A stretch of DNA of 38,037 bases. It comes from Methanobacteriota archaeon (GTDB lineage Archaea > Thermoplasmatota > Poseidoniia > Poseidoniales > Poseidoniaceae). Location: the NCBI GenBank assembly GCA_018667575.1, contig JABIUA010000127.1, positions 1-38,037 of the forward strand, written 5' to 3'. Positions 4,802 to 12,462 of the stretch are shown in pieces. Made by a program: the position numbers and the translations under genes. Under the pieces are notes generated by a model. The model was not told where the DNA came from. It was given only the letters and a program-made list of their open reading frames with translations, and did not search any database. Every line of letters begins with the position of its first letter. The stretch's first letter is position 1.

Positions 4802-5701
4802 CTATATGATCATCGAGAGTAATATAGCCCATCCAGTAAAGATAGATACTCTAAATAACGATGTTTGGAAGTCCTGTAAACTATCTTTCTTCAAAATTAT
4901 ATAGCAGTTTAGAATAGCCAAAAGAGCCACTAAGTAAACATAAAATGAATCTTGAATAGGTTTTGAAATAATGAAACATAGCATCCAGACCAATATCAGA
5001 ACATATGATATCTTAGTGGTGAAGTCTTCACCAAATCTAGCTGGAAAAGAGTTGACTCCGTTATCTTGGTCGCTAGTAATGTCCATGCGAGCGTAGTTGA
5101 TATCAAAAGCAGTAATCCAAATTGCAACTCCAAGTGATAGAAACAGAATAGTGGGCTGCCAAAGGAGTCCAGAACCTAATCCATCAGTGCCTGTCAATGC
5201 CTCCCATCCATGGAAATCCCCTGCGATTGCAAGCCATGCCCCTGCTGGTGCGAGACCTAAGCACAAACCAAGCCATGAATGGCACAACCAAGTAAATCGC
5301 TTGGTGTATGGATAAACAACAAATGCAAGAACAGGGAGCCATGACATACCCAATGCAACCTCGTTTAGCATACCTGCACCAAAGAGTAGCATTACCAAGA
5401 ATATGCCTGCTAATATCCAGGCTGTGTTCATCGACATTGTTCCACTGGCTAAATGCCTCGAAGCAGTTCTAGGGTTTGCTGCATCGATCTCTCTGTCGAT
5501 TATTCGGTTCAGGGTCATTGCTAGACCGCGTGCCCCTACCCCTGCCACTAAAATCCAAATTAAATCTAGATTGAAAATAGATTTATCATCCAGCAAGTCA
5601 TTGAACTGATTATTAGCAACTATGAACCCAACCAGTATGAAAGGTAGCGAGAATAGAGTATGTTCGATTTTAATGAAGGACATTATTTGTTTGAAATCCA
5701 T
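4802..5701 (-). CDS. ubiA: UbiA-family prenyltransferase (4-hydroxybenzoate/MqnP-like)
   Basis: A 299-residue integral membrane enzyme that joins an isoprenoid diphosphate to an aromatic ring. Both Mg-diphosphate motifs of the UbiA superfamily are present: NRIIDREID at residues 65-73 and a second DxxYxxxDxxxD motif (DINYARMDITSDQD). About eight or nine hydrophobic helices follow the usual pattern. A TTG codon precedes the ATG, but the ATG at 5701 overlaps the ubiD stop by one base (TGATG), so translation is coupled to ubiD and I take the ATG. Pairing with a UbiD decarboxylase points to quinone synthesis, either ubiquinone-like or the MqnP step of the futalosine menaquinone route. Which of these it is cannot be settled here. 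Confidence 0.93.
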   Translation of the reverse strand: MDFKQIMSFIKIEHTLFSLPFILVGFIVANNQFNDLLDDKSIFNLDLIWILVAGVGARGLAMTLNRIIDREIDAANPRTASRHLASGTMSMNTAWILAGIFLVMLLFGAGMLNEVALGMSWLPVLAFVVYPYTKRFTWLCHSWLGLCLGLAPAGAWLAIAGDFHGWEALTGTDGLGSGLLWQPTILFLSLGVAIWITAFDINYARMDITSDQDNGVNSFPARFGEDFTTKISYVLILVWMLCFIISKPIQDSFYVYLVALLAILNCYIILKKDSLQDFQTSLFRVSIFTGWAILLSMII

Positions 5702-7653
5702 CAATTAGAGCCCCCAAATTCTAGATGTACTGGCCACTCATAACCAGATAATTCGGGATGAGCGTTCAATTTCTCTAAGGTTTCTGGAGTATGTAGAGTA
5801 ATTGCAGGCCACCTTCTAACCCCATGCTCATCGCTAGGGATAGGAACGGTAGCATCCCAGCAGAGTCTTTGCTTATTTTGGTCAAATGTCAAGCCTCTGC
5901 TGACATCAAACCTTGAAGTCAACTGCCAAAGCAAACGTCTCCTTGCTTTTTCACAATGTAAATCAAGGTCATTATTTGTGATAAATAACCATCTAAGAGA
6001 AGAATTGAAGTCCAATTGCCAAATTGAATTTTTTAATTGAGTAATTTTATCTATTCTCACTTTTTCTGCGGCATCATTTGAATCGGACGAACCCGTTTTT
6101 GGAGAAGGTGAATTTTCAATATCGATTGTAACTATCAACATACTGTCACGTAGCATTCTAGCATCTGAAACTTCTGATAGTTTCAATACTTCATCAATTG
6201 ATTCAAACTTTGGTGGAGCATCCAACCCTTGGCGCCATGCTGGGGTCTCTTGGTTGAACGAACCTTCTAATGGTTCATTATTTGAACGAGGGTCTGAAGA
6301 AGGTATTGTGGTTGCATCGATCAATAACTTATCTTGGACATTTTCAAACGGACTTGCCGCATCGAGAGAATCTGCAACCATTCCATTGAGAATGATTACA
6401 TCTTCAGCAATTTCGACTTTGTCATTCAAAGCATCCAGTAGCGCTTCGAGGTCTTTTGGATTTTGTTCTGGATCTACTACAACAATGGATTTGAGGAACA
6501 TCATTTGACCTGCTCCGAGTAGTCCAAGAGCCGTTTTTCTTGCTTGGCGAGGATATCGTTGCTTTGAAGCAACGATTGCTAGATTATGAAAACCGGTCTC
6601 CAATGGAAGATGAACACTTTTTACATCCCTATGTTGGAATTGCAATACTGGTGAAAACTGTCTGCCAATCGCTTCACCAAGGTAGCCATCTTCCATCGGA
6701 GGAAGGCCAACAATGGTCGCAGGAAGGACTGCATCTTTTCGTCTGGTTATCGCAGTAACATGCATCACCGGATATTGCCCTGTTAAAGAGTAGAATCCAA
6801 AGTGGTCTCCAAATGGCCCTTCAAGCCTAGTTTCTCCAGGAATACAATACCCCTCGATAACGATATCTGCTTCCGCTGGTACCATGATATCTTGAGTGAG
6901 AGCTTTTGTGATTCGAAGAGACCTCCTGCCAAGGATTCCTGCGAATTGATATTCAGATAGATTATCGGGCAAAGGTGCTATTGCAGAAAAAATCAGTTCT
7001 GGTGGACCACCCATGCAAATTGCAACCGGCATCTTTTGTTTCTCGCCAATTGCAGAAGCGTGGTCTGCTGCGTGTTTGTGAATCTGCCAATGCAGTCCTA
7101 TTTCTGTTTCACTAAACACTTGGGCTCTATACATTCCAAGATTGTGATCGCCGTTTACTGGGTCTTTGGTAACAACCAAAGGTAGTGTCACGAAGTGCCC
7201 ACCATCCATTGGCCATGTTTTGGGAATCGGCAATTTAGTCAAGTCTAAGTCCATCTTAACTCGCTGACAATTCCCCTTCCACTTCTTCCAAGGCGGCATT
7301 GCAAGTGCGTCTCTAGCGAGAGGCAGGGCTTTCCAGGGTTTCTTCATAAATTCACCAATCTCTGGTTTCATCATAGCAACCATCCTATCACCGACCTCTG
7401 TTTCATGGGTCGCACCAAGGGCTCTTAGAGTTCTATCACTTGTTCCAAATATATTCATGGCGAGTGGTATCTCGCTAATGCTGCCATCTGCAAGTCTCGG
7501 TTTCTCGAAAATTACAGCAGGACCAGAATTCTTGACTAGTAGGTCAGCAATAGCCCCCGCCTCGTAAACTACGTCTACTGGCCTAGAGATTCGGAGGAGT
7601 TCACCATTCCCCTCTAAGTGGTTTAACCACCGCTTCAAAGTCCTCCATGCCAC
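5701..7653 (-). CDS. ubiD: UbiD-family prenylated-FMN decarboxylase, long form
   Basis: Decarboxylates an aromatic or polyprenyl-aromatic acid using prenylated FMN. Conserved cofactor and catalytic segments are visible: N171-LGMYR, H188-WQIHKH, and E278-GPFGDHFGFYS, which carries the catalytic acid. At 650 residues it is longer than the roughly 490-residue E. coli UbiD. It has a polar insert around residues 500-530 and a C-terminal domain ending in an acidic/aromatic tail, nearer the size of menaquinone-pathway (MqnL-type) members. The start is GTG at 7653, supported by the family-like N-terminus (WRTLKRWLNHLEGNGELLRI); a GAGG lies close upstream. The stop overlaps the ubiA start. The likely partner is the adjacent UbiA; a UbiX-type flavin prenyltransferase must lie elsewhere. 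Confidence 0.93.
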   Translation of the reverse strand: MAWRTLKRWLNHLEGNGELLRISRPVDVVYEAGAIADLLVKNSGPAVIFEKPRLADGSISEIPLAMNIFGTSDRTLRALGATHETEVGDRMVAMMKPEIGEFMKKPWKALPLARDALAMPPWKKWKGNCQRVKMDLDLTKLPIPKTWPMDGGHFVTLPLVVTKDPVNGDHNLGMYRAQVFSETEIGLHWQIHKHAADHASAIGEKQKMPVAICMGGPPELIFSAIAPLPDNLSEYQFAGILGRRSLRITKALTQDIMVPAEADIVIEGYCIPGETRLEGPFGDHFGFYSLTGQYPVMHVTAITRRKDAVLPATIVGLPPMEDGYLGEAIGRQFSPVLQFQHRDVKSVHLPLETGFHNLAIVASKQRYPRQARKTALGLLGAGQMMFLKSIVVVDPEQNPKDLEALLDALNDKVEIAEDVIILNGMVADSLDAASPFENVQDKLLIDATTIPSSDPRSNNEPLEGSFNQETPAWRQGLDAPPKFESIDEVLKLSEVSDARMLRDSMLIVTIDIENSPSPKTGSSDSNDAAEKVRIDKITQLKNSIWQLDFNSSLRWLFITNNDLDLHCEKARRRLLWQLTSRFDVSRGLTFDQNKQRLCWDATVPIPSDEHGVRRWPAITLHTPETLEKLNAHPELSGYEWPVHLEFGGSN

Positions 7654-11580: not shown

Positions 11581-11628
11581 TTATGAAGGGGAGTCAAGTC
11601 GGCCGAAACACTCTAAGGAGGCTATATC

Positions 11629-12462
11629 ATGAAAGATGGAGCAATTATACATGTTGATTATGACTTATTCAGCGGCGAAACCGGTGACTTGATTGAAACT
11701 ACAAGCGAAGATGTGGCAAAGGAGCATGAAATGCACCAAGAGGGACGTTCTTACGCACCTATGGTCTGTGTTGTCGGCTCTGGAGGATTGATTCCTGGTT
11801 TCGAAGCAGCACTCCTCGATGCTAAAGTCGGAAAAGAAGTAGTCTGTGAAATCGCTCCAGAAGATGGATATGGCGAAAAAGACGCTACTATGACTGAAGT
11901 AATCAGTATTGATAAACTAAAAAGATCGGTTCAAGACCCTCAATCACTATACATCGGCGCACCAATTACTATCGGTGGACGCCAAGGTTACCTAACCTAC
12001 TTAGCCGCAGGACGTGCAAAGATAGACTACAACCATCCTATGGCTGGTAAGACTCTGAAGTACGTTTTCACAGTGGTCAAAGAACTCAAAGGAAAGGATG
12101 ACAAAGTGCTAGGCCTATTAGAATCTAACACTGGCCACAGTGGTTTTGAAGTTTCTTTCAAGGGAGACGACCTTTCTATTACCCTACCTCAATCAATGCT
12201 ATTTGACACCAATGCAGCAATGTTGAAATTTAGACTTGTAACTATCATTCGTGACGCTGTCGAGTGCGGCAAGGTCTCATTTGTCGAAGTACACGAGCCA
12301 AGAGGCGTAGGTATTGACAACCAAGTTCAAGATGACGATGATGAGGACTTGTCCAAGTTATCAGTTGCAGAACTTAAAGACAGATTGAAAGCAAGAAATC
12401 TACCTGTCGGCGGAAAGAAAGCTGAACTTATTGAACGCTTATCTCAAGAAGAAGAAGAGTGA
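11629..12462 (+). CDS. FKBP-type peptidyl-prolyl isomerase with C-terminal SAP domain
   Basis: A 277-residue protein. The first about 160 residues are an archaeal/SlyD-like FKBP: DGAIIHVDYDLF at the start, GSGGLIPGFEAALLDAKVGK forming the FKBP core, the EDGYGEKD flap, and an inserted chaperone-like segment before YNHPMAGKTLKYVFTVVKEL. It should isomerise prolyl bonds and assist protein folding. A middle domain (about 160-225) resembles an archaeal FKBP C-terminal extension. After an acidic linker, the last about 38 residues (LSKLSVAELKDRLKARNLPV, then GGKKAELIERL) are a recognisable SAP motif, a two-helix nucleic-acid-binding module. A strong AAGGAGG precedes ATG 11629. The fusion suggests a chaperone that works near nucleic acid, which is inference. 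Confidence 0.9.
   Translation: MKDGAIIHVDYDLFSGETGDLIETTSEDVAKEHEMHQEGRSYAPMVCVVGSGGLIPGFEAALLDAKVGKEVVCEIAPEDGYGEKDATMTEVISIDKLKRSVQDPQSLYIGAPITIGGRQGYLTYLAAGRAKIDYNHPMAGKTLKYVFTVVKELKGKDDKVLGLLESNTGHSGFEVSFKGDDLSITLPQSMLFDTNAAMLKFRLVTIIRDAVECGKVSFVEVHEPRGVGIDNQVQDDDDEDLSKLSVAELKDRLKARNLPVGGKKAELIERLSQEEEE

What the first reader, a model, noticed from the sequence alone, without database searches (positions are those of the whole stretch)
11629..12462. FKBP prolyl isomerase fused to a SAP nucleic-acid-binding domain
The C-terminal 38 residues have the SAP pattern (L-S-V-A-E-L-K-D-R-L, G-x-K-A-E-L-I-E-R-L) after an acidic linker. A folding enzyme tethered to nucleic acid is uncommon and could act on nascent chains, chromatin or repair factors.
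Basis: partly seen in the sequence, partly recalled or inferred. Interest (0 to 1): 0.5.

Follow-up and report, generated by a model that had tools for sequence, protein, structure and literature searches.

The report
SAP-tailed FKBP26 chaperone of marine archaea
A protein-folding helper in abundant ocean archaea carries a small DNA-binding-type tail, one of several such tails that these archaea have also attached to ribosomal and membrane proteins, which suggests that the helper is held at a particular place in the cell.

Summary
ORF 11629-12462 encodes a long-type archaeal FKBP (FKBP26 fold; Foldseek TM 0.88 to M. jannaschii FKBP26) with a disordered acidic linker and a C-terminal SAP domain (PF02037, 49.5 bits against a cut-off of 23.9; residues 240-271). 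The tail is patchy: on 56 of 102 orthologues, namely 54 of 60 in the window's family (Ca. Poseidoniaceae), 2 of 39 in the sister family and 0 of 3 in the outgroup family. Between families the SAP is far better conserved than the FKBP body (88% against 50%) at equal codon divergence, so it is under selection and not freshly acquired. Other orthologues end in short acidic, His-rich, Cys-rich or Lys-rich tails. The FKBP is not alone: every class-mate shown carries 2-11 SAP domains, on ribosomal proteins eL32, eS1 or uL24, on Pus10, and at predicted cytoplasmic ends of membrane proteases and other membrane proteins. Most likely the SAP docks the chaperone on nucleic acid near translation; binding is inferred, not shown. 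The active-site pair F-D is I-E here, so isomerase activity is uncertain. I found no description in the open-access papers searched.

The parts
11615..11621 (+). Shine-Dalgarno-like AAGGAGG before the start codon
   Evidence: read by eye
11629..12462 (+). whole gene, 277 aa: FKBP26-type protein with C-terminal SAP
11629..12081 (+). FKBP domain with insert-in-flap, residues about 1-151
   Evidence: phmmer to 1ix5 residues 4-151 and 3pr9 residues 3-149; PF00254 residues 40-87; model strands; boundaries approximate
11692..11697 (+). residues I22-E23, in place of the F-D active-site pair of long-type archaeal FKBPs
   Evidence: I/L-E in 99 of 99 family f1 and f2 sequences, F-D in 3 of 3 outgroup sequences (alignment); importance of Y15, F25, D26 from PMC8530231 (passages)
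12082..12300 (+). FKBP26 C-terminal domain, residues about 152-224
   Evidence: 3prb alignment to residue 224; FKBP26_C 21.3 bits, below cut-off; fold match TM 0.88
12304..12345 (+). acidic linker, residues 226-239; in relatives it can carry HDHDHD or HVHDENCNHD
   Evidence: pLDDT below 50 at residues 226-237
12346..12441 (+). SAP domain, residues 240-271; model helices 246-255 and 264-276
12442..12459 (+). acidic end ...QEEEE; an end in EE or EEE is shared with SAP-less orthologues
   Evidence: 95 of 102 orthologues end in EE

Best explanation
A long-type archaeal FKBP (FKBP26 class, mainly a chaperone) to which a SAP domain was attached through a flexible acidic linker. Shown: the fold, the fusion, its conservation, and SAP domains on ribosomal proteins eL32 and eS1 in the same genome. 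Inferred: the SAP is a small docking module that binds nucleic acid (DNA by analogy with yeast Tho1 SAP; RNA not excluded) and holds the chaperone where genes are transcribed and translated, so that it meets new chains. It would work like the ribosome-held PPIase trigger factor or the nucleic-acid-held FKBP25, by a different anchor.
For: Strong SAP and FKBP matches; FKBP26 fold; separate helical SAP after a disordered linker in the model. SAP conserved 88% against 50% for the body between family f2 genus g9 and family f1 genus g1 (90 pairs), while the share of identical codons at identical residues is the same (0.37 against 0.35), so selection and not recent transfer. FKBP SAPs are the most basic of the groups compared, mean net charge +3.6 over 60 rows (a few rows are the same gene fetched twice), against +0.6 for eL32 (26) and +1.8 for eS1 (8). 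The same genome has SAP on eL32, eS1 and Pus10. In family f3, which lacks the FKBP SAP, the FKBP has a Lys-rich tail instead (3 of 3) and its gene lies about 2.9 kb from eS1-SAP.
Against: No binding was measured. 46 of 102 orthologues lack the SAP and most end in a short acidic tail, so tethering is dispensable for the gene's core job. The linker and C-terminus are acidic, which works against nucleic-acid binding. SAP domains also sit on membrane proteins, so the common partner may be something else. The I-E active-site pair may mean weak isomerase activity.
Confidence: 0.5

Rival explanations
1. The SAP is a protein-binding or homotypic tag, not a nucleic-acid binder: all SAP-tagged proteins of these archaea (ribosomal, FKBP, membrane) dock on one shared partner or on each other.
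For: SAP is found on very unlike carriers, among them polytopic membrane proteins and the cytoplasmic ends of membrane proteases; eL32 SAPs are almost neutral in charge.
Against: The closest solved SAP, Tho1, binds DNA (PMC4909252 passages); the FKBP SAP is clearly basic.
Confidence: 0.22
2. Chromatin or DNA-repair role: the SAP holds the isomerase on DNA to act on DNA-bound proteins, as FKBP25, Fpr4 or Ku70-type SAP proteins do.
For: SAP of Tho1 binds dsDNA and not dsRNA; FKBP25 binds DNA and acts in break repair (PMC7457334 passages).
Against: No repair or chromatin gene in the conserved neighbourhood (GGR, CcmF, DUF63, acyl-CoA carboxylase genes); the other soluble SAP carriers identified in this genome are translation or RNA proteins.
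Confidence: 0.15
3. The tail is a tolerated, nearly neutral add-on in a fast-changing tail region.
For: The tail changes often: acidic, His-rich, Cys-rich, Lys-rich or SAP; at least 4 changes of SAP state on the body tree.
Against: 88% identity of the SAP across families with the body at 50% and codons equally diverged; SAP on 51 of 51 g1 and g13 proteins in the tree.
Confidence: 0.08

Closest known systems
Methanocaldococcus jannaschii FKBP26 (3prb)
   Same: Fold of residues 3-224, TM 0.88, 27% identity
   Different: No SAP or acidic linker in the solved chain; active-site pair F-D against I-E here (alignment)
Yeast Tho1 / human SARNP (CIP29) SAP domain
   Same: Tail aligns over all 38 residues, E 5e-7 to Tho1 4uzw
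   Different: N-terminal SAP in an mRNP protein, no FKBP; binds DNA, not dsRNA (PMC4909252 passages)
Human FKBP25 (FKBP3)
   Same: An FKBP joined to a nucleic-acid-binding domain; linked to ribosomal and chromatin proteins (PMC7457334 passages)
   Different: N-terminal basic tilted helix bundle instead of SAP; short-type FKBP without insert-in-flap (recalled); weak match only (E about 0.014)
Bacterial SlyD
   Same: FKBP with insert-in-flap; its His-rich metal-binding tail (recalled) resembles the HDHDHD and HVHDENC tails of relatives
   Different: No SAP; lacks the FKBP26 C-terminal domain
Trigger factor
   Same: Works-like analogy only: a PPIase held at the ribosome (recalled)
   Different: Different architecture; held through a ribosomal protein contact, not SAP (recalled)

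Membership tests
FKBP-type prolyl isomerase (PF00254) | profile match above the curated cut-off | tested here: met
   31.7 bits against 21.1
FKBP-type prolyl isomerase (PF00254) | active-site F-D pair (F36-D37 in FKBP12 numbering, recalled; F25-D26 in PMC8530231) | tested here: not met
   I22-E23 here; I/L-E in 99 of 99 f1 and f2 rows. This lowers the claim of isomerase activity, not the claim of the fold
FKBP-type prolyl isomerase (PF00254) | measured prolyl isomerase activity | not testable with these tools
   no assay
Long-type archaeal FKBP (FKBP26) | FKBP domain + insert-in-flap + C-terminal domain in this order | tested here: met
   Foldseek 3prb_A TM 0.88 over 228 columns; phmmer residues 3-224. 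The two Pfam FKBP26 models stay below cut-off
SAP domain (PF02037) | profile match and helix-extended-loop-helix | tested here: met
   49.5 bits; helices 246-255 and 264-276 in the model
SAP domain (PF02037) | nucleic-acid binding | not testable with these tools
   inferred from Tho1
FKBP25-like nucleic-acid-binding FKBP | N-terminal basic tilted helix bundle before a short FKBP | tested here: not met
   FKBP starts at residue 3; the added domain is C-terminal and SAP

The most novel reading that the evidence does not exclude
The archaea of this class use SAP as a common address tag. Both ribosomal subunits (eS1 plus eL32 in Poseidoniales, eS1 plus uL24 in the outgroup family), a chaperone, an RNA-modifying enzyme and the cytoplasmic ends of membrane-anchored proteases and other membrane proteins all carry near-interchangeable SAP domains, so that ribosomes, folding helpers and membrane proteins gather on the nucleoid or on messenger RNA: a built-in coupling of transcription, translation and membrane insertion.
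Probability: 0.22. Interest if true: 0.78.

Novelty: new variant of a known kind. Interest (0 to 1): 0.52.

Why it matters
How new proteins are met by folding helpers in archaea, which lack trigger factor (recalled), is open. A chaperone with its own nucleic-acid-type anchor, present in some genera and missing at the same locus in close relatives, is a natural with/without comparison. The wider finding, SAP domains moved onto ribosomal proteins of both subunits and onto cytoplasmic ends of membrane proteins in one archaeal class, would be a testable spatial organisation in some of the most abundant ocean archaea.

Tried and rejected
Recent horizontal transfer of the tail between families: rejected, because codon identity in the SAP is no higher than in the body. 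Copying of the FKBP SAP from eL32 or eS1 of the same genome: not supported for g9, g16, g13 and the window, whose SAP is closer to FKBP SAPs of other genera (26-31 of 31 residues) than to any of 72 non-FKBP SAPs (19-25 of 31); undecided for g18 (23 against 22) (of the g1 rows only the window's was printed). Gain against loss: at least 4 changes on the body tree, but sequence similarity points to one old origin with losses; not settled. SAP-FKBP outside the class: none among the 21 SAP loci of the 18 phylum genomes outside the class that have a SAP match (the FKBP body gave no tblastn hit at E up to 1; loci). A regular-expression look at those 21 loci failed for 19 and was dropped. The SAP pattern missed three proteins (L290, L291, L294) that plainly carry SAP; they are counted by eye.

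Literature: ten searches. No listed title or abstract described an archaeal SAP-FKBP or SAP domains on Poseidoniales ribosomal proteins. I read passages only of PMC4909252, PMC7457334, PMC8530231, PMC11936186 and PMC6461757; of the rest I saw only the listings.

Full report
OBSERVATION. The ORF at 11629-12462 on the + strand is real (277 aa). Pfam finds FKBP_C (31.7 bits, cut-off 21.1) and, over residues 240-271, SAP (49.5 bits, cut-off 23.9, E 3e-13); two FKBP26-specific models match below their cut-offs. By sequence the best solved relative is M. jannaschii FKBP26, E 1.2e-23 over residues 3-224; yeast Tho1 SAP appears in the same search over residues 239-277. The tail alone matches Tho1 SAP at E 5e-7.

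STRUCTURE. AlphaFold2 on 33 sequences (P0001 and 32 of 80 named relatives) gave mean pLDDT 81.6 and pTM 0.58. Residues 226-237 are below 50, and the SAP has helices 246-255 and 264-276. Foldseek puts 3prb (FKBP26) first, TM 0.88 by target length, 27% identity. So this is a long-type archaeal FKBP with insert-in-flap and C-terminal domain, followed by a floppy acidic linker and a separate SAP.

ACTIVE SITE. Long-type archaeal FKBPs have active-site residues Y15, F25, D26 (PMC8530231, passages). The F-D pair is I-E here. In my set of 102 orthologues it is I-E in 94 and L-E in 5 of the 99 sequences of families f1 and f2, and F-D in 3 of 3 sequences of the outgroup family f3 (alignment). Isomerase activity is therefore not assured; a chaperone role is the safer reading.

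DISTRIBUTION OF THE TAIL. Of the 99 order genomes (own included), 87 have an orthologue; 11 of 59 f1 genomes and 1 of 40 f2 genomes do not, and those f1 genomes are 57-83% complete. With 15 further f1 genomes and 6 f3 genomes (3 of the 6 f3 genomes have an orthologue), 102 sequences went into the tree. SAP is present in 56: g1 45 of 45, g13 6 of 6, g16 2 of 2, g18 1 of 1, g9 2 of 2. It is absent in g14 (0 of 2), g15 (0 of 2), g17 (0 of 1), g19 (0 of 1), all other f2 genera (0 of 37) and f3 (0 of 3). Three more g1 genomes had fragments: the SAP part is there in G009 and G055, and G029 is cut off at a contig end. In a separate scan of named genomes the best 80 of 288 relatives were kept; SAP is on 75, absent on 4, cut off on 1. 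These are Ca. Poseidoniaceae / Poseidoniales MAGs; contig lengths identify G056 with CM001443.1 and G044 with NHGH02000002.1, which names family f1. That f2 is Thalassarchaeaceae and f3 is Marine Group III is recalled, not from a call.

SAME LOCUS, DIFFERENT TAILS. GGR, CcmF, FKBP, DUF63 and the acyl-CoA carboxylase, enoyl-CoA hydratase and biotin carboxylase genes stay together in f1 and f2 genomes with and without SAP. CcmF-FKBP-DUF63 in this order was seen in 10 of 13 loci compared (L107 and L237 are one genome; L314 has a gap before CcmF); L125 has CcmF but no DUF63 in the stretch, and the f3 loci L310 and L311 have neither. At this locus the tail is SAP, short acidic, His-rich (HDHDHD..., HVHDENC...) or Cys-rich (G156); in f3 it is Lys-rich. 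His-rich stretches also occur together with SAP, before it or after it (11 of 45 g1, 4 of 6 g13 and 2 of 2 g16 proteins by pattern). An end in EE is shared by 95 of 102.

SELECTION ON THE TAIL. On a maximum-likelihood tree of the FKBP bodies (residues 1-224) the SAP state changes at least 4 times; starred branches force 3; the f3 branch is long. Between g9 and g1 (90 pairs) the SAP is 88% identical and the body 50%; the share of identical codons at identical residues is 0.37 and 0.35. Within g1 the difference is small (86% and 82%), and for g18 against g1 the SAP is not better kept than the body (66% and 69%; one g18 protein). So the SAP is old in these proteins and, over the deepest split, constrained more tightly than the body. 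FKBP SAPs of g9, g16, g13 and the window are closer to FKBP SAPs of other genera (26-31 of 31) than to any of 72 non-FKBP SAPs (19-25); g18 is a near tie, 23 against 22. I favour one old gain with several losses but cannot exclude repeated gain from a common donor.

THE WIDER SETTING. This genome has 7 SAP proteins: eL32 (N-terminal), eS1/S3Ae (C-terminal), FKBP, Pus10 (internal), a membrane-anchored M28 peptidase (N-terminal), a zinc-ribbon membrane protein (N-terminal) and a polytopic membrane protein with EF hands (C-terminal). All 99 of 99 order genomes have SAP, 2-10 each. In a phylum sample of 292 genomes 105 have SAP: 87 are class-mates (3-11 each) and 18 lie outside (1-2 matches each); every unmatched genome displayed lies outside the class, though 167 were not displayed. 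Across five genomes (G000, G056, G067, G074, G093) I sorted 37 SAP carriers: 15 translation/RNA/FKBP (eL32 5, eS1 5, FKBP 3, Pus10 2), 18 membrane proteins and 4 others. Some assignments (transmembrane spans of L006, L131, L146; M28 for L131, L146; eL32 and eS1 of G056) are by eye from the sequences. In one search the SAP lies before the first hydrophobic span in 7 of 7 carriers with an N-terminal SAP (L308 shows a further weak span) and after the last span in 3 of 3 S8 proteases; both places are predicted cytoplasmic, from hydropathy alone. SAP-eL32 is contiguous in 55 of 58 f1/f2 genomes (2 split, 1 cut at a contig edge) and absent from the 17 f3 genomes with an eL32 match (21 f3 genomes searched); in f3 the SAP is on uL24 instead. 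eS1-SAP is in one aligned piece in 45 of 58 f1/f2 genomes (most others are split or cut), and f3 eS1 also carries it. Outside the class none of 21 SAP loci in 18 genomes lies on an FKBP.

MECHANISM. Shown: fold, fusion, conservation, company. Inferred: the SAP docks the chaperone. Tho1 SAP binds DNA and not dsRNA (PMC4909252, passages), so DNA is the default ligand; but the company of ribosomal proteins and Pus10 favours a place near translation, and archaeal transcription and translation share one compartment, so the two fit together. The FKBP SAPs are the most basic of the groups compared (mean +3.6 over 60 rows). Against: acidic flanks, patchy presence, and SAPs on membrane proteins that could mean a shared protein partner.

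VERDICT. As a fusion it is a new variant of known parts (FKBP26 + SAP). The part that deserves attention is the class-wide reuse of SAP, of which this FKBP is one case and which offers with/without pairs at one locus.

Noticed in passing
L002:1492-2151; L127, L055, L063: Ribosomal protein eL32 of Poseidoniales carries an N-terminal SAP and a long acidic linker (55 of 58 f1/f2 genomes contiguous; Pfam).
   Followed up: partly
L201:1489-2127, L202:1495-2136: In the outgroup family f3, eL32 lacks the SAP but uL24 has a C-terminal SAP (G171 has two in tandem): SAP sits on another 50S protein.
   Followed up: partly
L004:661-1602, L200, L196, L041, L140: Ribosomal protein eS1 (S3Ae) carries a C-terminal SAP across the class.
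   Followed up: partly
L298, L306 (M28); L301, L302, L303 (S8): Membrane-anchored proteases have SAP on the predicted cytoplasmic side, N-terminal in M28 and C-terminal in S8 proteins.
   Followed up: partly
L305:280-2445: A polytopic membrane protein of this genome ends in EF hands and a SAP/Rho_N-like domain.
   Followed up: no
L103, L104, L106, L180, L116-L118, L120, L122: The peptide HVHDENC[ND]H recurs in FKBP tails of distant genera, with or without SAP, before it or after it: a SlyD-like metal-binding tail that moves about.
   Followed up: no
L310:3979-4734, L311:3953-4729: The family f3 FKBP has a Lys/Ala-rich tail and lies about 2.9 kb from eS1-SAP.
   Followed up: partly
L107:12295-13311 and 5616-7222: In the closed genome G056 the GGR and PccB matches are each in two pieces, possible frameshifts or assembly errors.
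   Followed up: no
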